Positions 37,938-64,000 of a DNA stretch of 64,000 nt are shown piece after piece. The stretch is from Fuerstiella marisgermanici. GTDB taxonomy: Bacteria; Planctomycetota; Planctomycetia; Planctomycetales; Planctomycetaceae. The notes beneath the pieces are model-generated. The model had not been told where the DNA came from, did no database searches, and saw nothing but the letters and a program-made list of their open reading frames with translations. Positions within the stretch are counted from its first letter, which is position 1, and every line of letters begins with the position of its first letter. A program made the position numbers and the translations under genes. The stretch is taken from positions 5,985,001 through 6,049,000 of the forward strand of contig NZ_CP017641.1 of NCBI RefSeq assembly GCF_001983935.1, given 5' to 3'.

Positions 37938-39326
37938 TCAATTAGTGAAAGTGTTCCGGAGCACCCACAGCGACGATGCTGTCGGGGCGCCGCCGACGCG
38001 GAAGCGTGCGATGATCTTCATGTTTTGCAGAGCCATCACGTTGATGATCCCGTCCGCCGGTTCCGTGAAGATCGCATAGCGACCGTAAGCATCGAAGGTG
38101 ATGGCGTGATGGCCGTAGTGCCCGTTGATTTTGCTCGCACCAACCGGCAGGCTGATTTTGACTCGTGCGTCGGAGTAGTCACGATCGCGATTGGGGTCGA
38201 GTTCAACAATGGTTAACTTTTCCTGGACATCGCTGTCTGAGTCGGTGCGATCCTGAAACAAAAACGCGTAGCGGTTCCCGAGCGACAGCACGGCCCGCGG
38301 CGTGGTCAGTTTTAGTCCGTCAGCGACATCAATGGGAACCTTGACAATCTTCGGTTCCGTCAGAGCCGCGTTGACCAAACACAGCCCCGATTGATCGGCC
38401 TTCCCCGTGGAAAACAAGACCCAGTTGCGACTGTTCTCAAATGCGCCGGTTCGCATCGGCTTGTCGGATTCTTCATCTTTGCCCAGTGACAAATGATGCA
38501 CTTTCACGCTGTCCGCCGATTGACGCAGCGAAGTATCAGCGGCCACCCAGCACACACCGTCCGCCGGAGCAAGAAACACCTTGCCAGAGCTGGCGGTGGC
38601 CCCGTGAATCACGCCCGTCGGCAGATTGAACGAATAGGAAATCTTCGGCTGCGACTGCCGCAGGTCCACCACGTCGACTCTGCCAGCGTTCGGACCACCG
38701 CCATCAATCCACGAACTATACGCAACCGTGTTATTGACGGCAGCCAGCGTGATGTGGTTACCACCGCCGGGGTAGAACTTTGCCACATCCGCACGACCGG
38801 TTTGCATGAAAGCAGTCGGCAGGGCCTTGGTGAAACCGTTGTTCCTGTCGTTTGCCAGATAGAACTGTCGATCGTAGACATACAGGTGAGCTGGGTTTCC
38901 CTGATCAGTATCCAGTTGCTTTTGCTTGACGGAGGGCTTGCGTGTGTACTTCCAGTGCGTGTGATTGCCGTGCGGTTCTTCGAACACGCCCGTATCGATC
39001 GCAACCCAGCCGCTTTGGTGTTTTCCGTCGTCGTGATCTCGAACACCGACCATCAGGACACCGTCCGACGCCTTCATCTGAACAAGATCCTGTTGTTCCG
39101 CGTCGAGTTTTGGAAACCCGTCCACCCAGCCACGCTTGATCGACCACTTGTCTGCCGCCGTGATGTCTGCGTAGGAAAGTTGGTCGGTGTCACGATCCTG
39201 CCAAAAAATTCGCGTCATGATTTTGGTACGAATCGTCTGAGCCCGCATCGGTGACGCGCAGGTGATCACGATCAGCAGGGCGGTCAGCACGCCTTTTCTA
39301 TAACGTCTTTTGTTGTTGGCCTTCAT
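37938..39326 (-). CDS. Secreted beta-propeller, possibly AztD-like zinc chaperone
   Basis: 462 residues from 39326 (MKANNKRRYRKGVLTALLIV, signal peptide; upstream in-frame codons rejected). The mature chain has propeller-like repeats and a His-rich loop VFEEPHGNHTHWKYTRKP, followed by GVIHGATASSGKVFLAPADG and KINGHYGHHAITFDAYGRYA. These features recall AztD, the periplasmic beta-propeller zinc chaperone of AztABCD systems, but I cannot confirm homology by eye. It is the last gene of block I, whose first gene is a Cys/His-rich membrane protein. If not AztD-like, it is a secreted propeller of unknown ligand. Confidence 0.6.
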   Translation of the reverse strand: MKANNKRRYRKGVLTALLIVITCASPMRAQTIRTKIMTRIFWQDRDTDQLSYADITAADKWSIKRGWVDGFPKLDAEQQDLVQMKASDGVLMVGVRDHDDGKHQSGWVAIDTGVFEEPHGNHTHWKYTRKPSVKQKQLDTDQGNPAHLYVYDRQFYLANDRNNGFTKALPTAFMQTGRADVAKFYPGGGNHITLAAVNNTVAYSSWIDGGGPNAGRVDVVDLRQSQPKISYSFNLPTGVIHGATASSGKVFLAPADGVCWVAADTSLRQSADSVKVHHLSLGKDEESDKPMRTGAFENSRNWVLFSTGKADQSGLCLVNAALTEPKIVKVPIDVADGLKLTTPRAVLSLGNRYAFLFQDRTDSDSDVQEKLTIVELDPNRDRDYSDARVKISLPVGASKINGHYGHHAITFDAYGRYAIFTEPADGIINVMALQNMKIIARFRVGGAPTASSLWVLRNTFTN

Positions 39327-39359
39327 CGTCGGTCCTATATCAATTTCTATCTCGGTAAT

Positions 39360-39379
39360 ACTGCGGATGCGTCCGCAGT
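39360..39379. other. Perfect 8-bp hairpin in the gap before the propeller gene
   Basis: ACTGCGGA and TCCGCAGT enclose a TGCG loop in the 127-base gap between the small lipoprotein and propeller genes. No T tract follows on the minus strand. It could attenuate transcription or protect the downstream mRNA. Confidence 0.4.
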
Positions 39380-39453
39380 TGACCATCTGAAGTGGGAGTA
39401 GGTTAATCAATGTGGACAGCCGTGTCCGTGAGGTGAGCTGTTTTCCGAGGCTT

Positions 39454-39837
39454 TCAGAATGGATTCTCGGTACCGTCCATGACGGAGAATTTACGATTTC
39501 GGAATTCGACACATTGCCAACGCAGGCCGTCGGCTGCCGGATTCAGCCAGTAGAAGCGACGGTCGTTTGTGCCCGACGTGAATACGGTCGGCTGGCCTTC
39601 GAATTCCGGACTGCCTGCGAGATCCTGATTCAACGAAAAGAACTTCTTCAGACATTGCATGTCGGGAGCCTGCACGCCCGGTTGCTTCTGCCAGGCGATC
39701 CCGTCCCGTTCGAACTGGTCCGGAACGTTCACTGTGACTTCCGGCAGTTGGTCCGGTTCGCTGTTACACCCCGTGGCCGCGAGCAACGACAATGCGACAA
39801 CCGAACGGTGAAGGGCAACTCTGGGGAGGAGCTTCAT
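39454..39837 (-). CDS. Small predicted lipoprotein of block I (127 aa)
   Basis: Signal MKLLPRVALHRSVVALSLLA ends in the lipobox AATGC (Cys24). The mature domain has ERDGIAWQKQPGVQAPDMQC and NDRRFYWLNPAADGLRWQC, with paired Cys that could form a disulfide. No family recognised. Its ATG overlaps the stop of the preceding PQQ/EF-hand gene as ATGA, so the two are translationally coupled. Confidence 0.8.
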   Translation of the reverse strand: MKLLPRVALHRSVVALSLLAATGCNSEPDQLPEVTVNVPDQFERDGIAWQKQPGVQAPDMQCLKKFFSLNQDLAGSPEFEGQPTVFTSGTNDRRFYWLNPAADGLRWQCVEFRNRKFSVMDGTENPF

Positions 39838-41495
39838 GGTGAATCCTCCGTTGCCAAAGCCGAGCTCTCGTCAGCGATGCAATACAATCGAGTGCCTGTG
39901 CGAACAACGACGATTCCGGGCACGGCCGCCACTCCGTAGACGATGGGGTCTCGTGACGATGCCTGAGAATTCTTCCGGCGTTCTGCAAAGCTTTTGGCCA
40001 TCGCCGCCAGTTCCTTCTGGTCCAACGATCCGTCACCGTTGGTGTCGACTCGCCTTAGCATCGGACGAAAGTCGGCGGAGATTTCGTCAGCCTGAAGGAT
40101 TCCGTCGCCGTTGGCATCGCCCTTCATCATGGCGGCAATCATCCCGCTTGCTCGACCACCACTCGCAGGGCGGGCGCTCTCACCTTCGCCACTCGGCTTC
40201 GAACCATCGCCACCTGGCGGACCTCCGTGACCAGAACCGCCTTCGGCACCGTGCGAGCCATGGCCATGGGAACGAGAGGCTTCGCGATACGTCTCCGGCT
40301 CTGGCGGATCTTTCTGGTCCCACAGTTGGTTGGTGGCAACCACGCCGAACTCGCGCCCGCGTTGCACCACTTTCACGGTGCCGTCCTTCGCAAAAAAGTA
40401 GATGCCGTCCTGTGTGACAATGGGAGTCGCCCAGCATTCGGCTCGCAAACGTTGCTGGTAAATCGTCTCGCCAGACATCGCGTCCACGCAGTACAGCACG
40501 CCGACCTTATTCAGAAAGTAGACCTGCTCACCATCCACGACCGGGCTGGCATAGTCACTGACAGCCTTGGTAGCTCGCCAGCAAAGTTCATACGGTTGGG
40601 CTGATTCCCCCGTGATGCGAATGCAAAGATTCGACTTCGCGGCATCGCTGGCCGAACCAAATTCCGGAATACGAGCACCGATAAACACATATTCGCCGAC
40701 CGCACATGGTGACGGGACGGAATTCCCTTCAAGCCCCTCAACACTCCACAGCTGTTTTCCGTTTTCAAGATCGTAGCCGGAAACGTCGCCTCCCGAAGAC
40801 ACCACCACTTGCTGGTGCGAATCCGGGCCGGCCACAATCGGCGTTGTCCATGAACTGCCGGAAGGTCGATCGGTCTTCCAGCGAGTTTTCCCCGTCCGCT
40901 TATCAACGGCCAGCAGAAACGACGGTCCTTTGTGTTCCATGTTCAGCACGATCATGTCGGCGGTCTGAGCGGGCGAACTTCCCAGACCGTGATTGTTCTG
41001 AAATGGGCCGTAGTCCGCGTTCAGGTCACGATGCCACAACTGTTGACCGTCCGGGCTGACTGCAACCAGATCTCCACTTTCAAAGAAGACGTAAACAGCA
41101 TCGCTGTCTACGACCGGTGTCGGTGCAGATCGAGCCATCATGTAGCTGGACGGTGCCTGACGAGCGGTCTCGAAGCGATGTTGCCACAGTCGCTGACCAT
41201 CCTTCAGGTCAAACGCGGTCACAGCGCATTGCTCTTTCTGTTCGCCAATCACACTGGCGACGAAGACCTTGCCATCGGCAATCACTGGTGCCGATTGTCC
41301 ATAGCCATCTGTTTCCGTCTGCCATGAGATGCCGTCGTCCGGCGACCACTGAAGCGGCAGCGATCCGGACAGACGCGACGTGCCGCCGTTGCGAAATCCC
41401 GTCCATGACGAAGCCACATTGTCCGCAGCCATGGCACTTGTTGCCGTGACCGCGAGAAGTAAAAAACTTTTGGATAGGTGTTGAAACTGATTCAT
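39834..41495 (-). CDS. Secreted PQQ-propeller protein with His/Gly linker and EF-hands
   Basis: 553 residues from 41495 (MNQFQHLSKSFLLLAVTATS, signal peptide; 84 upstream in-frame codons rejected). A quinoprotein-like propeller fills about 25-420 (WTGFRNGGTSRL, VDKRTGKTRWKTDRPSG, VDAMSGETIYQQRL). A His/Gly-rich linker SHGHGSHGAEGGSGHGG follows, then two EF-hand loops, DANGDGILQADE and DTNGDGSLDQKE, and a short closing propeller strand GIVVVRTGTRLYCI. The His-rich insert is unusual for planctomycete PQQ-like proteins and fits a metal-linked locus. Confidence 0.88.
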   Translation of the reverse strand: MNQFQHLSKSFLLLAVTATSAMAADNVASSWTGFRNGGTSRLSGSLPLQWSPDDGISWQTETDGYGQSAPVIADGKVFVASVIGEQKEQCAVTAFDLKDGQRLWQHRFETARQAPSSYMMARSAPTPVVDSDAVYVFFESGDLVAVSPDGQQLWHRDLNADYGPFQNNHGLGSSPAQTADMIVLNMEHKGPSFLLAVDKRTGKTRWKTDRPSGSSWTTPIVAGPDSHQQVVVSSGGDVSGYDLENGKQLWSVEGLEGNSVPSPCAVGEYVFIGARIPEFGSASDAAKSNLCIRITGESAQPYELCWRATKAVSDYASPVVDGEQVYFLNKVGVLYCVDAMSGETIYQQRLRAECWATPIVTQDGIYFFAKDGTVKVVQRGREFGVVATNQLWDQKDPPEPETYREASRSHGHGSHGAEGGSGHGGPPGGDGSKPSGEGESARPASGGRASGMIAAMMKGDANGDGILQADEISADFRPMLRRVDTNGDGSLDQKELAAMAKSFAERRKNSQASSRDPIVYGVAAVPGIVVVRTGTRLYCIADESSALATEDSP

Positions 41496-41592
41496 GATTT
41501 GATTCCGCAAAAAAAGTGAAGAACGCGCCGCCACGTTGGCCCAGCAAAGATGAAAAACAGCATTGGCCTTCATCTGGAGATCGCCGGCAGCA

Positions 41593-42570
41593 TTACCATT
41601 CACCGATGACCTCACCGTCGTTGCGCGAAAACGTATTTCGAAACGTACCAAGGTCGACGTTGTCGCTGATGAACCGAACGCTGCCGTCGCACAAAGCGGC
41701 CTGTGCTCCACCGACGTGCAGGCTACGCGGGCCGGAAACGACTTCACCGTGGTGAGTCATATCCGGCAGATCGGAGTTCGGCGTGAAGTAAGCATGGACG
41801 AGGGCGTGGTATCCGGTGCTGAGGATCCACGCTCCGGCACGACGGCCTTCATAGACGCTGGCCGACATCCCCGTCATATCGTCACCTGTTGGCACGCACG
41901 GTGAACCTCCGGAAACACGCTTCATCTGCCGCTGAGCATCCTGCAGTGTCGTCGTGTCTGCCTGGCGATTGCCAAACAGCGACTCCGCCATGAAAACGGT
42001 GTTGCTGGTGCCGTCGGTGATGTCGCGAAACTTCGTGCGCGATCCTCGCCAGAACAGACCGTCGTTCCTTGAAGAACAGTATTCGATGCCGCTTCCGGAA
42101 CCGCCGTTCAGCAAATAGTTGCCGCCGGCCCACGTGTCGCCATTGGCGTCAACGTAAAATGGATCGCCCGCTTCACTCGGGCATCGCAGGACGTTCAACT
42201 CACGCGACGCGACAGGTTGAATCGCAGGATTCATCTGCGGAGCCCATGGCAGCCCTACTTGAGCTGGCTGGTTGAAGTCGATCAGGCTGTGCAGATTGGC
42301 CTGTTCGTGAAAGGGAAGCAGTTGAGCGTGTGCCGAATATCCATACAGCGAGGACGACGAATTCAGCGGAAACGAAGAGTGTGTGTCGTGATAGTTGTGG
42401 GCTGCCAGTGCCAACTGCTTGAGATTGTTTTTGCACTGAGTCCGCCGAGCGGCTGCGCGAGCTTGTTGAACGGCGGGCAGAAGTAACGCGATGAGTATGG
42501 CAATGATCGCAATCACCACCAATAATTCGATGAGAGTAAACCCATTCGGGCGAGTAATTTTGTTTTGCAT
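41593..42570 (-). CDS. DUF1559 pseudopilin-like protein (type II secretion G-like N-terminus)
   Basis: 325 residues. The class III prepilin signal is [20 protein letters not shown]; cleavage by a prepilin peptidase is expected before Phe. The DUF1559 body is intact: [40 protein letters not shown] and the closing [19 protein letters not shown]. These are very numerous, uncharacterised pseudopilins in planctomycetes. It lies downstream of paralogue 1 of the Cys/His-rich family in block I; a paralogue (broken) holds the same position in block III. Confidence 0.93.
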
Positions 42571-42691
42571 GATTCAACTTTTTCAACATGTATCGAAGGA
42601 CACCGCGCAGCGGTGTCCGATGCGCGGTCTGTTTAGACAAACGAAGGTGGTCAGGCGAAAACGGAACCTCGGCGCGACCCGCGCACCGCAA

Positions 42692-42704
42692 GACTGGTCG
42701 GACC
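42692..42704. promoter_or_regulatory. Candidate operator GACTGGTCGGACC (site 1)
   Basis: Identical over 13 bases to site 4 (62982-62994) and similar to sites upstream of the three DUF2946-like genes. The core TGGTCGGACC is almost palindromic. It lies 122 bases upstream of the DUF1559 start. The rest of the 300-base gap 42571-42870 shows nothing else. Confidence 0.45.
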
Positions 42705-42870
42705 CGAAGTGTGACGGGGCCGCGACCGAGGATTCCTGATCGCATCACGCAACCGCTGCCGATGTGATCAGCAGACAGCCGCAGAAATCAGAGTCCACGT
42801 CGTCGATCTTTCCTGTGCGCACGGCGGTCGCTAATTGCGAACTTGCGCGCGGCGAAGTCGACGGCTGGAG

Positions 42871-43302
42871 TCAGGAAACAGCAGCTATAGACGGCGGACC
42901 GCGGCTCTTGCTGCGATAGCGCTCAGCTGACTCGGGGACGCCTGATTCGGCTCGTGGAAGCGCGGAAGCCGTCGCGAATTGCGGCAATCCAAGAGCGGAG
43001 AAATCAGCGGTGGACGTCGCAAACGCGGCCTGGCACACCGGACACGAATGAGAATCATGAGGCTTCTCAGGCGACGGCGATTCACTGCCCGAACGCTCAT
43101 CAGTTGCATGATGCGAGCAGTCGCAGTGGTGGCCGGAAAAACACGAAACAACAGCGCTGACCACTCCACTGTTGTGGTGACCATCGCTGTGTGCGTGTTC
43201 ACACCCGATGTGCAGCGAATACGTCGCGGGCACCACAGCAAGCTGCAGCAGCGCGACGAAGCACACAAACGAGCGTCGAAAGTTGTAATGTGTTTTGGAC
43301 AT
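42871..43302 (-). CDS. DUF2946-like Cys/His-rich membrane protein, paralogue 1
   Basis: 143 residues from 43302 (MSKTHYNFRRSFVCFVALLQ); 43311 is an alternative. One hydrophobic segment (about 11-28) is followed by a Cys/His-rich region (IGCEHAHSDGHH, SGHHCDCSHH), then HDSHSCPVCQAAFA (around residue 85), and a C-terminus ending in SRGPPSIAAVS. The last two features recur in the proteins at 50958-51476 and 63240-63653. CPxCQ plus a terminal R-G-P-P resembles the DUF2946 family, small proteins often near metal transporters. Predicted periplasmic metal-binding role, inferred only. First gene of block I. Confidence 0.75.
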   Translation of the reverse strand: MSKTHYNFRRSFVCFVALLQLAVVPATYSLHIGCEHAHSDGHHNSGVVSAVVSCFSGHHCDCSHHATDERSGSESPSPEKPHDSHSCPVCQAAFATSTADFSALGLPQFATASALPRAESGVPESAERYRSKSRGPPSIAAVS

Positions 43303-43326: not shown

Positions 43327-43338
43327 GTCCGACCAGGT
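43327..43338 (-). promoter_or_regulatory. Candidate operator TGGTCGGAC upstream of paralogue 1 (site 2)
   Basis: Minus-strand reading CCTGGTCGGACT, 25 bases upstream of the start at 43302. A TATACT hexamer lies about 8 bases further upstream and could be the -10 box, placing the site near the transcription start. Confidence 0.45.
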
Positions 43339-43521
43339 ACCGAAGTATACGATTGCATGTGAAGTAATGTGAGCACGGACTCAACGTAGTTCAGGAATTT
43401 CAGGAATGTTCTGGCCTCTGCATTTTTTTGATTGGCACATTGCCCAAACAGGGAATCAGAAATCGCCAACAAACTCGTCTGCAGATCGAGTCAGCAGGCA
43501 GCCCGCCTATCGACAGTATCA

Positions 43522-45081: not shown

Positions 45082-45183
45082 AGCTCGTTCTTTTCTGCAG
45101 CTTCTGTTGAACTCAGTTGAGGAGGAAGAAAGGAGATTGCGAGTCAGCGGATAGTTGTAAGCCCGGAGGGCGGTACACGGACT

Positions 45184-45205
45184 GCCGGTGGCGTCAGCCA
45201 CCGGC
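45184..45205. other. Strong intercistronic hairpin before the permease gene
   Basis: Perfect 9-bp stem GCCGGTGGC/GCCACCGGC with GTCA loop in the 165-base gap between the His-rich lipoprotein and permease genes. It could be a partial terminator, an mRNA-stabilising element or a planctomycete palindromic repeat. No T tract on the minus strand. Confidence 0.55.
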
Positions 45206-45246: not shown

Positions 45247-45789
45247 CTAATGTTGCTCATGATCATGATCATGATCATGATCATGATCATGGCCGTGGTG
45301 GCCGTCATGGCCATGATCGTGGTCGTGATGAATGGCGGTTTCCGGTTTCCCCGCTTCCGGGATCAGCGTTTGCAAAGTCTTCAGTTCGGTGGCGATCGCC
45401 TGAGACAGGTCTGAGAGATCAAGGCTTCCATCGGCTGACTTGCGAGTCGCCAGTTGCTCAGCAATCGCATTCGCCGCACTCACGGCTTGATTCCACTTTG
45501 CTTCATCAAGGTCGCTGTCTGCAGCCAGTTCCGGCATCCAATTCACGACGTCCAGCAATTCCTGAAACTCGTCCGCTTCATCGTCGTGCCCATGTCCGGC
45601 ATGAGCCGCAAGGTGGTCGCATCGGTGTTCGATCGCCTCAACGCCCTCCGCGAAATTGGCAGGCTTGTGGTGCGGAACAAAGTGTTCCAGATGGTGGTCA
45701 TCCGTGTGAGCATCCGCTTGCCAATCGCTGCAGCCACTGTGCGAACCCAACAGGAACAAGCCTGCGAACAGCGTGAAGAATAATTTCAT
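45247..45789 (-). CDS. His/Asp-rich predicted metal-binding lipoprotein
   Basis: 180 residues. The signal MKLFFTLFAGLFLLGSHSGC ends at the lipobox Cys20. The mature chain begins with scattered His (ADAHTDDHHLEHFVPHHK), has a helical middle, and ends in a run of alternating His and Asp (about residues 150-180) encoded by an ATGATC hexanucleotide array. Such tails bind Zn, Ni or Co and serve as buffers or chaperones. Its ATG overlaps the MoxR stop as ATGA. Predicted to sit on the periplasmic face; metal binding is inferred from composition. Confidence 0.85.
   Translation of the reverse strand: MKLFFTLFAGLFLLGSHSGCSDWQADAHTDDHHLEHFVPHHKPANFAEGVEAIEHRCDHLAAHAGHGHDDEADEFQELLDVVNWMPELAADSDLDEAKWNQAVSAANAIAEQLATRKSADGSLDLSDLSQAIATELKTLQTLIPEAGKPETAIHHDHDHGHDGHHGHDHDHDHDHDHEQH
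45257..45290. repeat. In-frame CATGAT hexanucleotide microsatellite
   Basis: About five and a half tandem units encode alternating His and Asp in the C-terminus of the His-rich lipoprotein. Because each unit is six bases, gain or loss changes the length of the metal-binding tail without a frameshift. Confidence 0.85.
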
Positions 45790-46760: not shown

Positions 46761-46984
46761 GTTGTTGATTGAAGAGTGTTTGATAGAAGTAGAAATCGCT
46801 GAGTAGTCACCGCCCGCGTTAATGCCGGGCAAATCGAATCCGCCTTGTGTTCGTGCGCAGTAACCTGTGGCCCACAAGAGTAGTCGCGGTGTGGGGCGTG
46901 CGGCAGATGTGTTGAAGGGACAACGACCAACGGAGTTGCCGCCAGCAACGTGATGAAGTGGATCTGCCGGAATAAGCTATTCAC
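46757..46984 (-). CDS. Small His/Cys-containing secreted protein, overlapping both neighbours (75 aa)
   Basis: A GTG at 46984 opens 75 residues: MNSLFRQIHFITLLAATPLV is a plausible signal peptide, and the mature part has HLPHAPHRDYSCG and HEHKADSICPALTRA. The second stretch weakly resembles the CPxCQ region of the DUF2946-like proteins. The GTG lies inside the ATGTGA at the end of the prepilin peptidase gene, and its TGA overlaps the MoxR ATG. This double coupling, and the otherwise empty 220 bases, support a real gene. No family recognised. Confidence 0.6.
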   Translation of the reverse strand: MNSLFRQIHFITLLAATPLVVVPSTHLPHAPHRDYSCGPQVTAHEHKADSICPALTRAVTTQRFLLLSNTLQSTT

Positions 46985-51506: not shown

Positions 51507-51516
51507 GGTCCGACCA
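51507..51516 (-). promoter_or_regulatory. Candidate operator TGGTCGGACC upstream of paralogue 2 (site 3)
   Basis: Minus-strand reading TTTGGTCGGACCTT, 31 bases upstream of the start at 51476. The other 300-odd bases to 51891 hold only the repeat copy C. Confidence 0.45.
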
Positions 51517-55819: not shown

Positions 55820-58800
55820 TCACTCGTCCTCATCATCATCAAACAGTCCATCCCTGAGATCTCTGCCGAGTGCTCTGGAAACCAGAACGAAATCGATCGA
55901 GTTCACTCGTCCATCTCCGTTGACATCCGCTTCCGGATTCTGATTTCTCATCGACTGCATCACGCTCATGCGGTCCGCAGCATCCACTTTTCGGTCACCG
56001 TTGACGTCACCCAGCAGACGGTAGAACGATTGATAAGTTTCGTACTCACCGTCGCCATCCGCATCGATTCCGATTTCGTAGTAGCCGTCGCCCGCGTTGG
56101 AGTTTCGATTGCCACCCAATCCCTGCACGCCGAAGTTAAATGACAGCCTGCTGCCGTTGGCCGACAGGGAATAGCCAGCGTCGGAAAGCAGGGATCCGTT
56201 TTCGCCGTTAAGATCATATTTGGTAATCTGAACTCGGTCTGGATTGGTCAGAATGTCGTCCAGCCCGTCTTCGCTGCCGAACAGCACATCCAGTTCGTCA
56301 ATGTACGAACGCTGTGTCATTCCGTTCTGAACTTCGATTCCTTCGGCCGTGTTGCCGACCTTAAAGAAGTAAGTCACGTCTTCACTGACATCGCCATCGG
56401 CCAGAGTTCCGCTGGCCTGCAACGTGATCTGGTACAGCCCCATTTCTGTGAAACCGAAGTTGGCGTGAGCGTGCCCGGCTTCCAGAAGCGTGATCAGGTC
56501 CGCTTCGGTGATGCCGTCCGACGTGGCCATGGCGACTTCCGGGCCTTCCAGTCCGGATGTCCACATCGAAAACTGTCCCGGCCCACTGACCGATTTCAGA
56601 CGCAGTTCCAGAGTGCCGTCCAGGAACGTCCCGACCTCAATCTCTTCAGTGCCAAGTCCCAGGAACAGCAAGTCGGAGTTCTCAGTGGCTGGCAGAACGA
56701 AGACCGATTCACCGGCATCCGTTCCGATGAAATCGTAGGCCGTTCCCGCAGGTCGGTCCGTGATCGCGTCCATGCCAACGTAAAGCAATGCCTCGTCGGC
56801 GTGGTATTCGACCTCACCTTCATGGTCATGAACGTGAAGGTCCCATTCTGCTTCTTCTTCGTGATCGTGATCATCGTCGTCGTCATGATCGTCTTCATCC
56901 TCGTCGTGATCGTGTTCTCCGATCACCACGCCGATGTCAACGTGGCCTTCTGTCAGCACCACCTCGAATTCTGCGTCCTCAGCAGCGCTAATGACGACTG
57001 TCGCAGTGGACGCCAGCCCCGTTCCATCATCGATGGAATACGTGAAACTATCCGAATCGTCGAAGGCTGCCGATGGCGTGTAAACGAACGAACCATCCGC
57101 AGAAACAACCACGCTGCCGCTGGTTGGTCCGGCGTCCAGTGCAGCCAAAAGCGCGTCGCCATCCACATCAAAGTCGTTGAACAACACATTGCCGTAGACC
57201 GAACTGCCCGAAGCTACCACAAATGCATCCTCAACGGCCGTAGGCGAGTGATGCGTCAACAGCGTCACGGTCGCAGTGGTGAATCCGCCACGTTCATTGG
57301 TCAGGCGATAGGCGAAGCTATCAACACCAGTCAATGCAGCGACCGGCTCGTAGGTGAACGTTCCATCCGCGTTGAGCGTCAGCGTTCCGTGTGCGGGTTC
57401 TGTTTCGACTGACGCCGTGTATTCGCCCATCGCTTCGTGCCAGTCGTCGTTTGCCGACACATCCCCGGTCAACGTTTCGCCTTCAAGGACCGTGAACGAA
57501 TCGTCCACAGCCCCAAGAGAGTCGACTGCAAAGACCATGGTCTGGATGCCGCTTTCGATGTAACTGTCTTTGCCAGGGTCGTAGACGCCGTTGTGATCAT
57601 TGTCGAGATAGCCACTTGCGTAAATATCGACTTCGTAGATCCCTGGTTCGCTAAAGCCGACGTTGAAATGTCCGTGGCTACCGACACGCAGGAAGAGTGC
57701 ATCAGCATCGCTAACCCCATCGCTGGTTGCCATGTAGACAGTGACTCCCGCACTCGGGTTCCAGGATGGAGGGTTGGACCAAAGGGAGAATTCACCTCCA
57801 CTGGTGCTCCGCACATCGACCATTTCGAGTTTGATGTATGGGCTGGCGCTGCTCGAAGTCACATTCGGACGGTCCGGCACATAACTTGCCAATGCTCCGC
57901 TCGGCACGCCCTCACCACTGAACCCAAGGAATGGCAACGAAGGCACCTGGGTGCTGGGGATCACATACAGCGGCTCATTCGCATCGACGCCCAGGAAGTC
58001 GTAGCTATCGTCCTCCGCCCGATTCACGATCCCTGTTGAGTCGACGTAGGTATAGATTCCGCCGCTGGGCACTTCGCCATCGGGGATTACGCCCGAATCG
58101 CCGTGAAGCACGTACGAAAGTTCGCCGTCGTTCAAGACCGGTCGATAGTCACCATGACCATCGGTGAAATACTTGTCGATCGGTGCCTCAACGCCGCGAC
58201 GAAGCGTATAGACCTCTCCACCGACGTAGCCTCTCGCCAGCGGAGCGCCTTCCAGATCGGCGATGCTGGCGTTTTCATTTACGCTCAAGGCCAGGACTCC
58301 GCTGCCTGTCCCGGCCGAAACAGTCACCTCGTACGTGCCGCCCGAACCCGTTACGGATTCGATAACGGCACCTGCAAGGTCGCCGTCGAACATCTTGACC
58401 TGGAAGTCCGAGACATCAACGCCTTCGACTGCCTCAGAGAACTCAACGGTAAAACGCACGGAAGCTGCGTCCGTCGGTGCGGAATCGCCTCGCGAGATAT
58501 GCTGCACCAGCGGCCCTACCGCATTAACGACCACCCCGTCGAGCACTGTGTCAGGGAATTCCAACAGGGCGCTGGTGCCCAGCGGGTCAGTAAGCGTTCC
58601 TTCATTGAGATCAATGGCATTGTCTGCGAGTTGGACACCATCGAGATCGAGGTCCGTCTCGCCGACCTGATAGACGAACTGATGCGTGGCGGTTCCCGAC
58701 CCGCTGGCGTATTCCGCGTAGACGGTTTCTCCTCCCAGATCCAACGCGATGCGAGGGGTACCCGTCACGGTAATTGGAAGTCCAAAATAGACTTGCAGTT

Positions 58801-59515
58801 CAATGGGATCGCCACCGGTATATGTGCGCGACTCGGGAGCAATGAACCGCATCGGATCTTCACCGTCTTGATTGATGAAGGCAGCCACGCTTGTTGGCCC
58901 CGACCTTTGAGGGACCACGATGTCCGGGTCGCCATCACCGTCGAGGTCTGGCGTCGCCATCGAATACATGATCGAATCGTATCGCTGCACCACGATCGCC
59001 GGCCCAAAGTCACCTCCACCCTGACCAAGCGCCCAACCCACGTTGAAATCGAAGAACGTGAATGCGACATCGTCATAGTTCGTGTGGGCGAACCCGATTT
59101 CGATAACCCCGTCGCCGTTGAAATCAGTCGCACTCAGACTGCTCACCACTTGCCCATAAATCGGCACATTCACTCGAGCACCGAAGGTTCCGCCCGCTTG
59201 CTGTGGATAGTAACCCACTTTATTCGGAGCACCTGCATCGGTGACCAGGAGATCGGCATAGCCGTCTCCATTGAGGTCAACAACCTGGTGCAGCGTCGTC
59301 CCGGTTTCGTCGGGCGTCACACTCGCCGGTGCCCCAAAATTCGCGGAACCATCATTTATGAAAATCAGGATGCTTTCTGCGCCGCTGTCCGATGCGACGA
59401 TGTCCAGGTCACCATCGTTGTCAATGTCGTGCAACTTCGTGGAAGCAATCGACGAAAGTGAGGAGAGGACGACTTCCGCGCCCAGCTCTCCCGCTGAGTT
59501 ACTGGTCTGCAGCAC
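55820..59515 (-). CDS. C-terminal part of interrupted giant surface protein (1231 aa)
   Basis: Same frame as the gene ending at 59534; only one TAG and six codons lie between them. A restart at GTG 59515 is possible, but it has no signal peptide. FG-GAP repeats (1-210) continue those upstream; then Ig-like domains (about 225-430), a choice-of-anchor M/TIGR03769-like domain (440-690), two cadherin-like tandem repeats (695-890), a second such domain with a His/Asp/Glu-rich insert (890-1110) and a dockerin-like pair of calcium loops (about 1165-1220, DVNGDRKVDAAD and DVNGDGRVNSID). The C-terminus LFDDDEDE is acidic. Likely not secreted on its own. Confidence 0.85.
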   Translation of the reverse strand: MLQTSNSAGELGAEVVLSSLSSIASTKLHDIDNDGDLDIVASDSGAESILIFINDGSANFGAPASVTPDETGTTLHQVVDLNGDGYADLLVTDAGAPNKVGYYPQQAGGTFGARVNVPIYGQVVSSLSATDFNGDGVIEIGFAHTNYDDVAFTFFDFNVGWALGQGGGDFGPAIVVQRYDSIMYSMATPDLDGDGDPDIVVPQRSGPTSVAAFINQDGEDPMRFIAPESRTYTGGDPIELQVYFGLPITVTGTPRIALDLGGETVYAEYASGSGTATHQFVYQVGETDLDLDGVQLADNAIDLNEGTLTDPLGTSALLEFPDTVLDGVVVNAVGPLVQHISRGDSAPTDAASVRFTVEFSEAVEGVDVSDFQVKMFDGDLAGAVIESVTGSGGTYEVTVSAGTGSGVLALSVNENASIADLEGAPLARGYVGGEVYTLRRGVEAPIDKYFTDGHGDYRPVLNDGELSYVLHGDSGVIPDGEVPSGGIYTYVDSTGIVNRAEDDSYDFLGVDANEPLYVIPSTQVPSLPFLGFSGEGVPSGALASYVPDRPNVTSSSASPYIKLEMVDVRSTSGGEFSLWSNPPSWNPSAGVTVYMATSDGVSDADALFLRVGSHGHFNVGFSEPGIYEVDIYASGYLDNDHNGVYDPGKDSYIESGIQTMVFAVDSLGAVDDSFTVLEGETLTGDVSANDDWHEAMGEYTASVETEPAHGTLTLNADGTFTYEPVAALTGVDSFAYRLTNERGGFTTATVTLLTHHSPTAVEDAFVVASGSSVYGNVLFNDFDVDGDALLAALDAGPTSGSVVVSADGSFVYTPSAAFDDSDSFTYSIDDGTGLASTATVVISAAEDAEFEVVLTEGHVDIGVVIGEHDHDEDEDDHDDDDDHDHEEEAEWDLHVHDHEGEVEYHADEALLYVGMDAITDRPAGTAYDFIGTDAGESVFVLPATENSDLLFLGLGTEEIEVGTFLDGTLELRLKSVSGPGQFSMWTSGLEGPEVAMATSDGITEADLITLLEAGHAHANFGFTEMGLYQITLQASGTLADGDVSEDVTYFFKVGNTAEGIEVQNGMTQRSYIDELDVLFGSEDGLDDILTNPDRVQITKYDLNGENGSLLSDAGYSLSANGSRLSFNFGVQGLGGNRNSNAGDGYYEIGIDADGDGEYETYQSFYRLLGDVNGDRKVDAADRMSVMQSMRNQNPEADVNGDGRVNSIDFVLVSRALGRDLRDGLFDDDEDE

Positions 59516-59533: not shown

Positions 59534-59536
59534 CTA
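59534..59536 (-). other. In-frame TAG splitting the giant surface protein
   Basis: Reading GTT TTT TAG AAG GAC TCA ACC AGC on the minus strand, homology runs through the stop in the same frame. A CAG, AAG or GAG codon one substitution away would restore a single 2003-codon gene (61828-55820). Confidence 0.85.
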
Positions 59537-61828
59537 AAAAACGATGTCTCCGAAATCGTCGCCATTCAGGTCTGCCACAGTGGTGTCTGCAACCTGCGGC
59601 AGTCCCCCACGTAGTATTTCGCGAGTGAATTGCCCTGATCCGTCGTTCCGATAAAGGGCCAGTTGGCCGTCCATCGTCAAACCGTTCAATGTGTCGGCAT
59701 CGTATTCCCCGGCGACGATGTCCAGATCGCCGTCGCCATCAAAGTCAATTTCAGCCAGATCTCCCGAGTACATGTCAGATCCGTGGTTCAACGCGACATC
59801 GGAGACAAAACTTCCGTTCCCGACGCCTTCCAGAAAGATGAGTGAACCAGCGAATCCGGCCGCTGCAATCACATCAGCAATGCCATCCCCGGTGAAGTCT
59901 ACGGACTTCAGCTGTTGCGACTGACCTTGACCGGACGCAATCGGCATGGAGAACGGCACAAGCCCACTGATCACTGCCACATCGAATGTTTCGGTGGCCT
60001 GCAGTCCACCGCCATCAGTAACCGTAACCGTGATCGTGGTCGATCCGCTCTGGTCCGCGGCCGGAGTGATCGTCAAGGTACGATTCGTACCCGTTCCACC
60101 GAGTACCAGATTTGCATCGGGAACGACTGCCATGTTCGCAGACGTCGCAACAACAACCAGGTCACCTGCTGCAGTCTCGGCATCGCCAATGGTGAAACTG
60201 ACGGACGAGTTGCTGTTCTCACCCACAACCACATCGCCGATTGCAGAAATCGTAGGATTCCCGTTGGCGGCATTGACGGTCAGGACGAACGTGTCCGTCG
60301 CCTTCAGTCCGCCTGCTTCAGTCACCGTAAGCGTAATTGTTGTTGTTCCGGTTTGATTAGCTGCGGGAGCAACGGTGACCGTTCGGTTTGCTCCGCTGCC
60401 CCCGAGCGTAATGTTGGCATTGGGAATAAGTGTCGGATTGGACGAGGTTGCCGTAACCGCCAACGCAGCCGCTGCTGTTTCTGCGTCTCCAACGACAAAT
60501 GCCAGGGCCGCCGTAGAGTCGCCTTCTTCGACCACCTGGTCCACCACGTCTGAGATGGTGGGCGGCGTGTTAACCGGCTGATCATTACCAGCAATGGTGA
60601 CAGTTGTTGAGGTGATCGTTCCGAGCAATCCGTTGGTGTCGCCTTCAATGTCGGTCAGGTAGTCATCGATATTCTCCGGACCAGCATTGCTTAGCTCGAT
60701 AGTAAACGATTCATCACCTTCCTCGTCCGCGTCATCGATAATCGGAACGGTGATCGTTTTCCGAATTTCGCCGTCAAGGAATTCCAGTGTCCCGCTGGCT
60801 GCCGTGTAGTCGCCAGGTTCTGTTGCTGTCCCATCGCTGGTGGCATAGTCCACGGTAATTCGGCCATCACTGCCGCCGGTGCGGACCACATCGATCGACG
60901 CGGTTCCGGCATCTTCGTTCACTGAGTAACTGGACTGCTCAAACTGCAGCTCCCCGACACTGATCACCGAAAAGTAAAGGGTGATATCGTCGCTTTCGCT
61001 GTAGCCCGCTGCGTTTGCCGTTGAGTTGTTGCCATCATCGCCGAAGTAGGCCGACAGCTTCACATCCACTTCGTAACGCCCCGGTTCTGTGAAGTCGAAG
61101 TTGAAGTGATTGTGTCCGCCCGCTGGAATCCACATGGCGTCGTCGCCCGAAATCCCATCCGTGACATCCAGCCCGTCCGAATTGGCGTTGTCCTGTCCGT
61201 CATCATAGGACGCCATCAGCACGGTGATCAGACCAAATGTTCCCGCTTGCCACAATGAGAACTTGCCGTCTCCCGTTGTCCCGTCGGGGTTGGTGTGGCG
61301 AACATCGGTTAACGTTGTCTTCGCCCAGCGCGTACTGCCGTTGACTCGCCCCTTCGATTCATCGACCGGGTTGTAAGAATCGACAGAACAGCCAAGACCG
61401 TAGGCGGCGAAGCCAGCGAAAATCAGCTCTGTGTCCTGGCTTTGAGGGAGATAGAATAAGCTCTCCCCGGATTCGACGCCCATGAAGTCAAAGTCGCTAC
61501 TGCCCGGCCGAGTAATTTCGGCTGGCGCGCCGACATACATCACGGCTTCATCGTTGGCATATTGGATGGCGGGAAACTGGTCCGAGTTGCGAGGGCCAAT
61601 TGCCCATTCCGAGCCATCATGCTGCAGATTGAGATCCACGTGCTCGGTCGTCAAATAGTTTTGCAGTGTCGCGGTCAGCAGCGTTTTGGCTTCCAGAGCC
61701 TCAATGGCCGTCTGATTCCGAACCTGCAATTTTCGTTTCCGGCCGCGTGATCGGCGAGCTGTGTGTGAGTCGGAAAATCCGTCACGCAAAAATCTCTTGA
61801 ACGTGTTCAACATGTTGGGGAAATCCAA
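59534..61828 (-). CDS. N-terminal part of interrupted giant surface protein (764 aa)
   Basis: Basic N-terminus and the export-type motif AIEALEAKTLLT (41-52). A choice-of-anchor M/TIGR03769-like domain spans about 60-295 (EHVDLNLQHDGSEW, GESLFYLPQSQDTEL, GGHNHFNFDFTEPGRYEVDV). A Calx-beta domain follows (YSVNEDAGTASIDVVRTGG), then two cadherin-like repeats (ENSNSSVSFTIGDAETAAG) and FG-GAP repeats that stop abruptly at LNGDDFGDIVF. Downstream codons continue the FG-GAP pattern in the same frame after TAG. TIGR03769-type domains are known from surface proteins linked to metal-uptake loci in actinobacteria. Confidence 0.87.
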   Translation of the reverse strand: MDFPNMLNTFKRFLRDGFSDSHTARRSRGRKRKLQVRNQTAIEALEAKTLLTATLQNYLTTEHVDLNLQHDGSEWAIGPRNSDQFPAIQYANDEAVMYVGAPAEITRPGSSDFDFMGVESGESLFYLPQSQDTELIFAGFAAYGLGCSVDSYNPVDESKGRVNGSTRWAKTTLTDVRHTNPDGTTGDGKFSLWQAGTFGLITVLMASYDDGQDNANSDGLDVTDGISGDDAMWIPAGGHNHFNFDFTEPGRYEVDVKLSAYFGDDGNNSTANAAGYSESDDITLYFSVISVGELQFEQSSYSVNEDAGTASIDVVRTGGSDGRITVDYATSDGTATEPGDYTAASGTLEFLDGEIRKTITVPIIDDADEEGDESFTIELSNAGPENIDDYLTDIEGDTNGLLGTITSTTVTIAGNDQPVNTPPTISDVVDQVVEEGDSTAALAFVVGDAETAAAALAVTATSSNPTLIPNANITLGGSGANRTVTVAPAANQTGTTTITLTVTEAGGLKATDTFVLTVNAANGNPTISAIGDVVVGENSNSSVSFTIGDAETAAGDLVVVATSANMAVVPDANLVLGGTGTNRTLTITPAADQSGSTTITVTVTDGGGLQATETFDVAVISGLVPFSMPIASGQGQSQQLKSVDFTGDGIADVIAAAGFAGSLIFLEGVGNGSFVSDVALNHGSDMYSGDLAEIDFDGDGDLDIVAGEYDADTLNGLTMDGQLALYRNDGSGQFTREILRGGLPQVADTTVADLNGDDFGDIVF

Positions 61829-61989: not shown

Positions 61990-62763
61990 TCAGGAAGTTG
62001 ATTCAGGGAAGTTCGTTAAAACAAATTGGGACATCCGTCGGGCCGGGCAAAGTTCTGTTCCTGATCGACCCACTGTTTGATCGTGGCGGCAGGAATCAGC
62101 TGCACATGACCATCGCAGAACAGATAGTTCGCATAGCCCATTGTTCGTCGCTCGGGAGGTGTGCCGATCGGAGCTCCGCTGAAACGGTCCGGCTGGATAT
62201 CCGCCAGAATCCGCCAGAATCCGCTGCCACGTGGCACTCTGCGGTGGTCTGAACCAGCTCCGGGAATGCGTGTGGTCCTCCGTGATTGCCGTTCCCTTCG
62301 CATTAGACGCCGTAAAGACAATGATGGTCCGGGACGTCGCCTGCAGATGATCCAGCTTCAGCGCCGCTTCGTCTCCGGGCACACACAGGTATTCGTTCAT
62401 TACATAGCTCGTTCCTTTGTTTTGCATGCGTTCCTGCCCTCTGGGGTCTTCCGGACAGATGCGAATCGCATCCACGTCTTCCATGTACGGACCGAGCGTG
62501 TAAATCCAGGTGTTTTCGAAGTCATAAGTGCCGTGAGTCGAAATCGGAAACTTGCCATTGTGGACTTCGCAGAACTGATGAATGGCCAGCCCAATTTGCC
62601 TCAGGTTGTTAGCGCACTGCGTACGCCGAGCGGCTTCGCGCGCTTTTTGAACAGCAGGCAATATGAGTGATACCAACACACCGGTGATGGCAATCACGAT
62701 CAGCAATTCGATGATCGTAAAACCGCATCTCAACGACGGCTTTGAGCCGCCTGAACGTTTCAT
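61990..62763 (-). pseudogene. DUF1559 pseudopilin gene frameshifted by a 10-bp tandem duplication
   Basis: The start at 62763 ([20 protein letters not shown]) gives a class III prepilin signal [18 protein letters not shown] and normal DUF1559 sequence up to about codon 185. After two tandem copies of CCGCCAGAAT the current frame encodes unrelated residues to 61990. Removing one copy restores [20 protein letters not shown] and the family C-terminus [13 protein letters not shown], ending at 62016. The product is probably non-functional unless the duplication is variable. It occupies the same operon position as the intact DUF1559 gene of block I. Confidence 0.85.
62201..62220. repeat. 10-bp tandem duplication (CCGCCAGAAT x2)
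   Basis: Two perfect adjacent copies, with the next bases CCGC continuing the period. It shifts the reading frame of the DUF1559 gene by one. Confidence 0.95.
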
Positions 62764-63239
62764 AAAGAGGAGTCCTCTATCGTTCTGTGACCAACTGGCA
62801 GATTCAGGTTTTTGAACTAAGAGCACACGGACGCCTTTCCGAACATCGACTGGCCGCGCCAAAAGTCCAGATCACGGCTCCGCTTCTGCCCGCCAACCAA
62901 CACTCGAAGTCGCCACGAACGAAGTCGTCGCGCAATCACCACAGAGCCCCTTACAGGGCCGCTACACGAGCGCAGGAACAGGACTGGTCGGACCATCATC
63001 CACACACCCGCGCAGCAGCTTTCCCTGACAGAACTCGGTGATGTAACCAAGCCAAGCATGCAGTGCCCCGATTTGCCGGAGCTTCATTTGGTGCAGCGAC
63101 CAACGTCGCCAACCGGCCGCATCAGATGGCGGCGGTTCGCAAAGCGAAAGCAGGGACGAGCCACCGCATTCGTGATCCGAAGTGGCGTGACTTGCCGGAA
63201 CTTTCCGTTTCGCACACTGCAAAAAGGGGATGTCGCACT
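62764..63239. other. Intergenic region between paralogue 3 and the DUF1559 gene
   Basis: 476 bases in block III, minus-strand genes on both sides. It holds the palindromic site 4 (62982-62994) but no supportable gene; short frames here have no signal or family motif. It corresponds in position to the 300-base gap with site 1 in block I. Confidence 0.4.
62982..62994. promoter_or_regulatory. Candidate operator GACTGGTCGGACC (site 4)
   Basis: Contains the perfect 11-base palindrome TGGTC-G-GACCA (62985-62995). Identical over 13 bases to site 1. It lies 219 bases upstream of the DUF1559 start. Confidence 0.5.
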
Positions 63240-63653
63240 CTAAGCGAGAGGCGGACCACGGGATTGAGCATCGCGGACGTAGCCAGCAACGGCGGATTCC
63301 TGAAGCGGAACCCACACCTCAGGCCGACAGCCACCGCCAGCAAGGCTGACTGGCAATGTAAGCCGATCGCTTGCAACAGCCAGAATCTGGCAGATCGAAC
63401 AGGAATCAGGATCGTGCTCCGGAGTCGGGGCATCGCCCGCAGGCGCTTGATGATCGCCCGTCGCCGCAGATGCCGTGACGGGAGTCAGCGAATGGCTATG
63501 CCCATGACAGCAACCGGAAGTACAAGCCGAAACCGAGCCAGCATCAACAGCACAGGACGCGCACTGAACCCGATGCACCATTTCCCCAAACAGCGAAATG
63601 CTGAGGTATATGATGAGAGCGGACCAGGTAAGAAGTCTTTGCGCGGGGCGCAT
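63240..63653 (-). CDS. DUF2946-like Cys/His-rich membrane protein, paralogue 3
   Basis: 137 residues from 63653 (MRPAQRLLTWSALIIYLSIS). TM or signal segment about 7-25; then Cys/His clusters (QCASCAVDAG, SGCCHGHSHS), HDPDSCSICQILAVA in the position of CPxCQ (here CSICQ), and a C-terminus RDAQSRGPPLA. It heads block III. Same layout as paralogues 1 and 2 but clearly diverged, so not a recent duplication. Role inferred as membrane-associated metal binding. Confidence 0.76.
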   Translation of the reverse strand: MRPAQRLLTWSALIIYLSISLFGEMVHRVQCASCAVDAGSVSACTSGCCHGHSHSLTPVTASAATGDHQAPAGDAPTPEHDPDSCSICQILAVASDRLTLPVSLAGGGCRPEVWVPLQESAVAGYVRDAQSRGPPLA

Positions 63654-64000
63654 AGTGGCGTCTACAAGCAGTATTAGCGAGACGACCAGTCCTGAGCTAT
63701 GGAGAGTAGCCGTACTACGATACCCGGAGTCAATCTGTTGGTTGGAATTCGTCGAGAATTCCTAAGTTGGGGTGTGGTCGCTAAACACCGCTTGGTTTTC
63801 GAGAGTGCGGTTCAACTATGCGAAGCTTGCTATGCCCGGGAAATTAAGAGCCAAAGGAAAGCGCCGACGAATCGAAGCCCCCGTTCTCTCCTGACCGGCG
63901 TCGTGCAACTCGCGAACAAACGCCCCCAAAGTTGTCGCTAACTGGTATGACTCAAATCTTGAGTCTGTTGCTGGTGCAGCGTTCGCAACCTTCGGTAACT
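63654..64000. other. Right-edge region without a supportable gene
   Basis: 347 bases upstream of paralogue 3. Apart from site 5 and a perfect hairpin GACTCAA-ATC-TTGAGTC (63948-63964) I see nothing. An 80-codon frame at 63699-63941 lacks a convincing start, signal or family motif. Confidence 0.4.
63683..63691 (-). promoter_or_regulatory. Candidate half-site ACTGGTCG upstream of paralogue 3 (site 5)
   Basis: Minus-strand reading GGACTGGTCGTC keeps the first half of the TGGTCGGAC motif, 30 bases upstream of the start at 63653, the same spacing as sites 2 and 3. The second half is not conserved. Confidence 0.3.

What the first reader, a model, noticed from the sequence alone, without database searches (positions are those of the whole stretch)
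37938..63691. Three gene blocks each headed by a paralogous Cys/His-rich SRGPP protein: candidate metal-responsive surface system
Seen: three small membrane proteins (42871-43302, 50958-51476, 63240-63653) share one hydrophobic segment, Cys/His clusters, a (C/S)PxCQ-like motif after HDxxxC, and a terminal SRGPP. Each is the first gene of a same-strand block. Block II contains a COG0523 GTPase with CICC, a His-Asp-rich lipoprotein, a COG0701 permease, a thioredoxin-like lipoprotein and MoxR. Blocks I and III contain DUF1559 pseudopilins and large secreted proteins with His-rich inserts. Known: COG0523 proteins are metal chaperones often induced by zinc limitation, and TIGR03769-type surface proteins occur at metal-uptake loci. 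Inferred: one regulon for capturing and trafficking zinc (or another metal) at the surface. I know of no description of this combination.
Basis: partly seen in the sequence, partly recalled or inferred. Interest (0 to 1): 0.85.

Follow-up and report, generated by a model that had tools for sequence, protein, structure and literature searches.

The report
Arrest-peptide leaders of zinc genes
The three small "SRGPP" proteins look less like surface proteins than like short leader genes whose half-made product may sense metal and stall the ribosome, controlling the zinc-scavenging genes behind them; such control is known for copper in other bacteria and is here tied to zinc-type genes in planctomycetes.

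Summary
In detail: three related minus-strand ORFs (42871-43302, 50958-51476, 63240-63653) head blocks of metal genes; a fourth lies about 4 kb beyond the window, a fifth elsewhere. A zinc link is well supported: block II has a ZigA GTPase above the curated cut-off, and block I's unknown 524-aa protein is AztD-like (zinc chaperone) in predicted fold and zinc ligands. The surface-protein reading of the SRGPP proteins is probably wrong. Of 91 relatives all hold R(G/A)PP, nearly always at the C-terminus; 90 have CxxC, and the spacer is 43 residues in 76 of 90 (range 42-46) with little sequence conservation; in 86 of 87 the next gene downstream is on the same strand. That is the architecture of the copper-sensing nascent-chain leaders CruR/CutF (DUF2946), and RGPP is a shown ribosome-arrest motif. 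Many leaders are flanked by complementary RNA elements: CUGGUCGG(A/G)C near the predicted mRNA 5' end, and GUCCGACCAG in the loop of a strong hairpin before the target gene; base changes covary, and Rfam has no match. Best reading: metal-sensing arrest-peptide leaders of zinc-acquisition operons. Stalling, metal and RNA pairing are untested. New variant of a known kind.

The parts
42871..43302 (-). leader I (SRGPP ORF, DUF2946-like)
   Evidence: translation; Pfam DUF2946 22.0 bits, below cut-off 23.7
50958..51476 (-). leader II (SRGPP ORF)
63240..63653 (-). leader III (SRGPP ORF)
43344..43373 (-). sigma70-like promoter before leader I (CTCACA, 18, TATACT)
   Evidence: consensus match only
43327..43336 (-). 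5' element CTGGTCGGAC, leader I
51508..51517 (-). 5' element TTGGTCGGAC (1 mismatch), leader II
63680..63689 (-). weak 5' element CTGGTCGTCT (3 mismatches), leader III
42661..42731 (-). hairpin between leader I and DUF1559; loop GTCCGACCAG at 42694-42703
62951..63012 (-). hairpin between leader III and DUF1559; loop element at 62984-62993
   Evidence: (as L016)
41593..42570 (-). DUF1559 pseudopilin, block I
   Evidence: PF07596 E 2e-55
39834..41747 (-). PQQ-type propeller with EF-hand
39454..39837 (-). small lipoprotein LP18, conserved in the block
37938..39512 (-). AztD-like zinc chaperone (X524); C-terminus apparently frameshifted near 37983
37084..37482 (-). small lipoprotein LP9, conserved in the block
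49214..50533 (-). ZigA (COG0523) GTPase with CICC
   Evidence: NF038288 614.7 bits, cut-off 600; sequence
48609..49217 (-). thioredoxin-like lipoprotein
46981..48612 (-). membrane protein with A24_N domain
45786..46877 (-). MoxR ATPase
45247..45789 (-). His/Asp-rich lipoprotein (not ZrgA by score)
43522..45201 (-). COG0701/ArsP_1 permease
61990..62862 (-). DUF1559, block III, apparently frameshifted
59534..61828 (-). choice-of-anchor M protein, first part, ends at in-frame TAG
55820..59515 (-). choice-of-anchor M/TIGR03769 protein, second part, His/Asp-rich insert

Best explanation
The SRGPP ORFs are leader ORFs of the CruR/CutF (DUF2946) type. Proposed mechanism: transcription starts at or near a CUGGUCGG(A/G)C element; the leader is translated and enters the membrane; its R-G-P-P core arrests the ribosome at the extreme C-terminus while the HDxxxCxxC site, 43 residues back, has just left the tunnel and can bind metal, most likely zinc. 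Metal changes the arrest and with it expression of the genes behind a long hairpin whose loop is complementary to the mRNA 5' end. By analogy with CruR, low metal gives arrest and expression of the acquisition genes (AztD-like chaperone, ZigA, DUF1559, permease, anchored surface protein). Shown here: protein architecture, fixed spacing, position, conserved RNA elements with covariation, zinc-type partners. Inferred: arrest, zinc as ligand, direction, start of the transcript, and how hairpin and 5' end act.
For: R(G/A)PP in 91 of 91 distinct relatives, 1-4 residues from the end in 73. CxxC-to-R spacing 43 in 76 of 90, 42-46 in all 90, s.d. 0.64, against s.d. 13.4 for hydrophobic segment to CxxC. 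In the spacer only the first residue (Gln, 55%) exceeds 40% identity, and RGPP codons vary synonymously, so length and peptide are what is kept. CruR: CXXC and RAPP 45 residues apart, both needed for normal control (PMC9426467, passages). CutF: 45 residues, placing the site in the SecY vestibule (PMC9973294, part of the discussion). RGPP arrests ribosomes in vivo and in vitro (PMC12992588, passages). [quoted passage not shown] 5' element within 1 mismatch in 36 of 88 leaders against 1 of 246 control genes. Hairpins: z below -2 in 29 of 29, control windows 7 of 109; stem covariation score reached by 0 of 500 shuffles; 5'-end/loop covariation score by 1 of 500. RNA-model search of 150 genomes: 27 hits; 8 lie outside the training set, 7 of them have an R(G/A)PP ORF 89-388 nt upstream on the same strand, the eighth lies at a contig end. 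Zinc partners: ZigA, AztD fold and ligands.
Against: No arrest, metal response or transcript was measured. Window copies score below the DUF2946 cut-off (22.0, 15.9, 15.1 against 23.7); 23 of 88 members match it at E<=1e-3. 5' element and loop occur together within 1 mismatch in only 19 of 88 leaders; 17 have only the first, 11 only the second. Block II and copies four and five show no such hairpin. Two of the five loop-pairing measures do not beat shuffles (67 and 311 of 500), a third is marginal (21 of 500). The plain consensus fold misses the long stem. Neither 10-11-base motif is over-represented in the whole genome (36 against 51, 31 against 41 for the reversed control). 13 of 843 other gene starts in the leader/ZigA loci also have the element within 1 mismatch. 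The DUF2946 leaders studied respond to copper. Apparent lesions in blocks I and III may mean decay or assembly errors.
Confidence: 0.62

Rival explanations
1. The SRGPP proteins are stable membrane-anchored metal-binding proteins that hand zinc to their block's other products; RGPP is a structural or sorting tail.
For: Cys/His-rich and variable N-terminal half with several conserved His/Cys; metal gene neighbours.
Against: Fixed 43-residue spacer with little conserved sequence and R(G/A)PP at the very end are not explained; studied relatives CruR and CutF act in cis as nascent chains.
Confidence: 0.15
2. The leaders are arrest-peptide sensors but of another signal: copper, several metals, or thiol/disulphide state.
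For: Studied DUF2946 leaders are copper sensors; RGPP/RAPP leaders also precede thioredoxin/DsbA genes; the permease's nearest NCBIfam model is a Cu/Zn exporter, far below cut-off.
Against: ZigA and AztD-like neighbours are zinc-type; in Caulobacter DUF2946 genes are listed among genes lowered in a zur mutant, one beside czrCBA (PMC4176598, passages).
Confidence: 0.22
3. CTGGTCGGAC and its inverted copy are operator sites of a DNA-binding regulator (core GGTC-N-GACC, recalled as similar to GntR/FadR-type operators), not RNA elements.
For: Core is palindromic; sites lie at promoters.
Against: Orientation is strict: 27 of 59 antisense and 0 of 59 sense within 1 mismatch downstream; changes within one element are not mirrored inside it but in the distant partner, as in L139, L210 and L127; the downstream copy sits in a conserved hairpin loop.
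Confidence: 0.2
4. The hairpin is an ordinary terminator or processing site between leader and operon, with no link to the leader's arrest.
For: Strong GC-rich stems, some followed by T runs.
Against: No terminator-like site called in window 42400-43600; invariant loop complementary to the 5' end.
Confidence: 0.15

Closest known systems
CruR (BP2923) leader of Bordetella, DUF2946
   Same: Small exported-type leader ORF, CXXC, C-terminal RAPP, fixed spacing, first in a metal-uptake operon, long intergenic region (PMC9426467, passages)
   Different: Copper, TonB-receptor target, RAPP, spacing 45; here mostly RGPP, spacing 43, zinc-type targets, and a 5'-end/hairpin-loop pair that the passages read do not describe. 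The paper notes a few homologues in Planctomycetes.
CutF of Rhodobacter capsulatus and CutF-like proteins
   Same: DUF2946, metal motif 45 residues before a Pro-rich stalling motif, intergenic stem-loop, control of the downstream gene (PMC9973294: abstract, sections 10-12, part of 13)
   Different: Copper; intergenic regions mostly under 100 nt; stem-loop hides the Shine-Dalgarno. The words planctomyc, zinc, COG0523, RGPP, DUF1559 and Zur are not in the main text held; the paper suggests that some members see other metals.
RAPP/RGPP arrest peptides (ApdA, ApdP and others)
   Same: RGPP core near the C-terminus of small localised proteins upstream of same-strand genes, metal genes among them (PMC12992588: section 13 and passages)
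   Different: Founding members sense Sec/YidC activity; no DUF1559 or zinc in the main text; its figures, which list downstream gene groups, are not held
AztD zinc chaperone (PDB 6ck1, 6cmk, 6n01)
   Same: Propeller fold; histidines of sites 1 and 2 (PMC6689063, passages)
   Different: Planctomycete branch with 13-17% identity to the solved ones; neighbours DUF1559 and leader ORF; AztABC not looked for
ZepA zinc exoprotein system
   Same: PVC members lie near COG0523 and Fur-family genes and PEP-CTERM proteins (PMC10957091: abstract, section 13, passages)
   Different: Its H-X2-9-H-F/Y-H motif is absent from P0012, P0013 and P0014

Membership tests
DUF2946 / CruR-CutF leader peptides | CXXC metal motif | tested here: met
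   90 of 91 relatives and all five own copies
DUF2946 / CruR-CutF leader peptides | R(A/G)PP within about 15 residues of the C-terminus | tested here: met
   motif in 91 of 91; 90 with a tail of 11 residues or fewer, one of 80
DUF2946 / CruR-CutF leader peptides | fixed spacing of about 45 residues between the motifs | tested here: met
   43 in 76 of 90, range 42-46; CruR and CutF 45
DUF2946 / CruR-CutF leader peptides | N-terminal hydrophobic signal or anchor | tested here: met
   best 16-mer hydropathy median 2.0, minimum 0.97; no signal-peptide predictor run
DUF2946 / CruR-CutF leader peptides | score over Pfam's gathering cut-off | tested here: not met
   window copies 22.0, 15.9, 15.1 against 23.7; 23 of 88 relatives match at E<=1e-3, best 1.1e-7
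DUF2946 / CruR-CutF leader peptides | ribosome arrest and metal-dependent control in cis | not testable with these tools
   needs reporter, toeprint or ribosome profiling
AztD zinc chaperones | AztD propeller fold | tested here: met
   model pLDDT 92; first nine PDB hits are all AztD chains, E 7e-13 to 1e-10, TM 0.61-0.66 by query
AztD zinc chaperones | site 1 (3 His) and site 2 (HGxHxD plus C-terminal His) | tested here: met
   H112, H156, H206 and H84-G85-x-H87-x-(H/D) kept in 12 of 12; correspondence to PdAztD read from a partial HMM alignment and motif order, not from superposition; the C-terminal His is lost in the window copy
AztD zinc chaperones | clear sequence match | tested here: inconclusive
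   profile E=0.034 to 6ck1; no NCBIfam match up to E 1
AztD zinc chaperones | aztABC transporter neighbours | not tested
   no search made for them
ZigA (COG0523) | NF038288 above curated cut-off | tested here: met
   614.7 against 600
ZrgA zinc uptake protein | NF047873 cut-off; ferredoxin-like fold (fold known for PA4063 from an abstract; that PA4063 is ZrgA is recalled) | tested here: not met
   20.9 against 185; model all-helical but for two single-residue strands, pLDDT 75
ZepA | H-X2-9-H-F/Y-H motif | tested here: not met
   absent from P0012, P0013, P0014
known Rfam RNA families | match at the hairpin or 5' element | tested here: not met
   window 37000-64000 up to E 5: four weak hits elsewhere; six relatives at gathering score: tmRNA only

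The most novel reading that the evidence does not exclude
Planctomycetes control zinc acquisition by a composite switch not described before: a zinc-sensing arrest-peptide leader whose mRNA 5' end base-pairs with the loop of a hairpin between leader and target, repeated at the head of several operons, so that each operon reads zinc through its own nascent chain; in this genome, where only one Fur-family gene was found, it may stand in for Zur.
Probability: 0.4. Interest if true: 0.88.

Novelty: new variant of a known kind. Interest (0 to 1): 0.76.

Why it matters
Nascent-chain metal sensing has been shown for copper in Proteobacteria. If these leaders respond to zinc, the principle extends to a second essential metal and to Planctomycetota, and it gives a function to a class of hypothetical SRGPP proteins and a context for the DUF1559 pseudopilins that follow them. 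The complementary 5'-end and hairpin-loop elements, if they pair, would be an unusual regulatory RNA architecture that a compensatory-change experiment can test directly. It also places AztD-like zinc chaperones in planctomycetes.

Tried and rejected
Surface-protein reading of the SRGPP proteins: set aside because of the fixed-length, poorly conserved spacer and the C-terminal arrest motif. ZrgA for the His/Asp-rich lipoprotein: rejected. ZepA: motif absent. A classical Zur box: blind searches upstream of 80 non-redundant leaders gave GGTC-N-GACC instead. Zur in the genome: one Fur-family gene, far away, not typed further. Hairpin as intrinsic terminator: no such site called at the window copy. 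MAFFT-based consensus folding of the hairpins did not recover the stem; a stem read by eye from the alignment and single folds was then counted, so it tends to exceed its slid versions for that reason alone. Pattern CGCGGNCCNCC was not informative. Genus not settled: the contig of a record titled Fuerstiella (L199) has the same length (13,156) as a contig of a same-genus genome, but another Fuerstiella-titled record (L188) matches in length a contig of a different genus. Searches behind 'not described': seen as listings; six papers read in the parts named; supplementary files could not be read.

Dropped or chosen rows: leaders with the same last 60 residues removed (104 to 91); 90 of 91 in the strict CxxC count and 4 of 91 without a downstream feature; 89 leaders with a usable start, 88 with enough upstream sequence; upstreams sharing a 25-mer removed and near-identical ones (32 kept). 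Of 49 loop-motif matches 30 follow a leader within 500 nt; 29 went into the hairpin set and L132, with a weaker fold, was left out; the other 19 are antisense copies of 5' elements or scattered, three of them in control loci. The 29 include close relatives. 31 of 88 leaders entered the loop-pairing count, chosen by mismatch to the two consensus elements only; some are probably chance hits and were kept. 88 of 89 leader proteins entered (L112, with an unknown residue, left out). Control genes come from 20 regions that I picked at round coordinates; control hairpin windows used 60 shuffles each, the set 200.


Full report
WHAT IS THERE. All three ORFs are real and on the minus strand and resemble each other. 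An HMM made from them finds five copies in the 8.92-Mb genome: the three, a fourth at 6052941-6053357 about 4 kb beyond the window, and a fifth at 2882222-2882638. The genes called from the fourth copy through the finding lie on one strand, about 31 kb. Order in the direction of transcription: leader D, DUF58, transglutaminase, leader III, DUF1559, anchor-M protein (split), PEP-CTERM, exosortase, TPR, leader II, ZigA, thioredoxin lipoprotein, A24_N protein, MoxR, His/Asp lipoprotein, permease, leader I, DUF1559, PQQ protein, lipoprotein, AztD-like protein, lipoprotein.

ZINC. The COG0523 protein passes the curated cut-off for ZigA (614.7 against 600 bits), the only match in the genome to do so. 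The 524-aa protein of block I matched no family. A profile of 12 relatives gave as its best PDB match 6ck1, E=0.034, in two partial pieces; PMC6689063 (passages) names 6ck1 as Paracoccus AztD. A model from 42 sequences (pLDDT 92) finds AztD in its first nine PDB hits, from three crystal entries, at 13-17% identity. The AztD zinc ligands given there (H124, H167, H218; H99, G100, H102, D104, C-terminal H408) have counterparts in the family: H112, H156, H206; H84-G85-x-H87-x-H/D; and a C-terminal His, the last lost in the window copy by what looks like a frameshift (another frame reads GAPEHFH and stops). In 66 named loci with this protein, DUF1559 is in the fetched stretch in 56, a leader in 30, ZigA in 13. 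Fur-family matches occur in 12 of 83 loci fetched round leaders or ZigA, two of them weak and partial, and in none of 20 control loci; one was scanned: PF01475, E=6e-13. None of this shows that the leaders themselves see zinc.

FAMILY SURVEY. In 150 genomes of the same family, drawn evenly from a larger group, 48 have a leader match, 42 a ZigA match at E<=1e-100, 23 both (Fisher p=4e-4). In 9 of the 23, leader and ZigA lie within 15 kb on one contig. Two arrangements recur: leader-DUF1559-PQQ-lipoprotein-AztD-like-(ZigA)-two lipoproteins; and leader-DUF58-transglutaminase-MoxR-His-rich lipoprotein-permease. The window holds the first as block I and a rearranged second split between block II and leader D.

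WHAT THE SRGPP PROTEINS ARE. Among 91 distinct relatives R(G/A)PP is universal and near the end: 1-4 residues follow in 73, 5-11 in 17, 80 in one. CxxC to R is 43 residues in 76 of 90, never outside 42-46, while the stretch from the hydrophobic segment to CxxC ranges from 28 to 112. Within the 43 residues only the first (Gln, 55%) exceeds 40% identity, and the RGPP codons vary synonymously: length and peptide are conserved. The next gene is on the same strand in 86 of 87, DUF1559 in 59, DUF58 in 12. These are the marks of DUF2946 leaders: CruR, with CXXC and RAPP 45 residues apart and both needed for normal copper control (PMC9426467, passages), and CutF, also 45 (PMC9973294: abstract, sections 10-12 and part of 13). 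RGPP was shown to arrest ribosomes strongly (PMC12992588: section 13 and passages). Pfam agrees weakly: window copies fall below the cut-off, 23 of 88 relatives match at E<=1e-3, best 1.1e-7. Prior hints beyond copper: CruR's paper mentions a few homologues in Planctomycetes; CutF's paper suggests nickel or cobalt for some members and names CzcI; two DUF2946 genes are lowered in a Caulobacter zur mutant, one beside czrCBA (PMC4176598, passages).

TWO RNA ELEMENTS. A blind motif search upstream of 80 non-redundant leaders found aCTGGTCGG(A/G)C. It is within one mismatch in 36 of 88 leaders, 20-41 nt before the start in 30 of the 36, against 1 of 246 control genes and 13 of 843 other gene starts in the same loci. 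In 32 non-redundant cases 19 have a -10-like hexamer starting 13-15 nt before it; shuffles reach at most 5 at any one offset, the real set 12 at -13. So the element probably lies at or near the mRNA 5' end. Between leader and DUF1559 the reverse complement stands within one mismatch in 27 of 59 regions, the sense form in none, one shuffle of each region in none. In 29 hairpins chosen beside leaders it lies in the apical part, enclosed by 23 or more pairs in 28 and 14 in the other; all have z below -2, median -4.4, against 7 of 109 control windows. Ten outer-stem pairs covary (20 cells with both sides changed, shuffles 7.5, 0 of 500; two further measures 34 and 44 of 500). Element and loop covary too: C-G to U-A in five, U-A to C-G in two, A-U to U-A in one, A-U to G-U in eleven of 29 distinct rows; the covariation score is reached by 1 and the share paired by 2 of 500 shuffles, the three other measures by 21, 67 and 311; related sequences share changes. 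A model of the hairpin searched over 150 genomes gave 27 hits in 25 genomes. Nineteen belong to the training set, by coordinate or contig length. Of the other eight, seven have an R(G/A)PP ORF 89-388 nt upstream on the same strand (five; G120:C38 and G100:C146 from the leader positions), the eighth is 3 nt from a contig end. No control locus matches at E<=1. No Rfam family matches. In the window, block I has both elements exactly, block III a weak 5' element and the loop, block II only the 5' element with one mismatch. Neither short motif is in excess genome-wide.

HOW IT PROBABLY WORKS. Shown: architecture, position, conservation. Inferred: the ribosome pauses at RGPP when the metal site has just emerged; metal alters the pause; the pause decides whether downstream genes are expressed, through Rho-type termination as in CruR or by changing the structured leader as in CutF. 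In the window copy the hairpin ends about 90 nt before the DUF1559 start, so simple hiding of the ribosome-binding site is not the obvious mode. What the 5'-end/loop pairing does is unknown; a leader looped on itself that a stalled ribosome keeps open or closed is one possibility.

VERDICT. The papers listed, as far as seen (listings, and the named parts of six papers), do not describe zinc-linked or DUF1559-linked planctomycete leaders of this kind or the RNA pair; supplementary tables and figures were not readable.

Noticed in passing
window 59534-59536, minus strand: In-frame TAG splits one FG-GAP/anchor-M protein of about 2000 aa into two ORFs in the same frame; the repeat continues on both sides.
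   Followed up: partly
window about 37983, minus strand: Apparent frameshift removes the conserved C-terminal His of the AztD-like protein.
   Followed up: partly
window about 62200-62300, minus strand: Apparent frameshift in the block III DUF1559; its C-terminal part is open in another frame.
   Followed up: partly
L016:10535-11386 and 13632-14483: Two ORFs of identical 283-aa translation in opposite orientation, transposase-like by eye, and a 390-aa transposase-like ORF between them, beside the fourth leader copy.
   Followed up: no
L089, L136, L137, L145, L155: ZigA genes in relatives recur with an FAD oxidoreductase (Pyr_redox_3) and an unknown ~200-aa protein (C20); MerC-like proteins and tandem ZigA genes also occur.
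   Followed up: partly
L016:8509-10120: Divergent DUF1559 plus small lipoprotein facing the fourth leader; the same pair faces leaders in L078 and L084.
   Followed up: no
window 51892-55823: TPR, exosortase and PEP-CTERM genes within block III; single-sequence HMMs of the first two found no match in the other fetched loci.
   Followed up: partly
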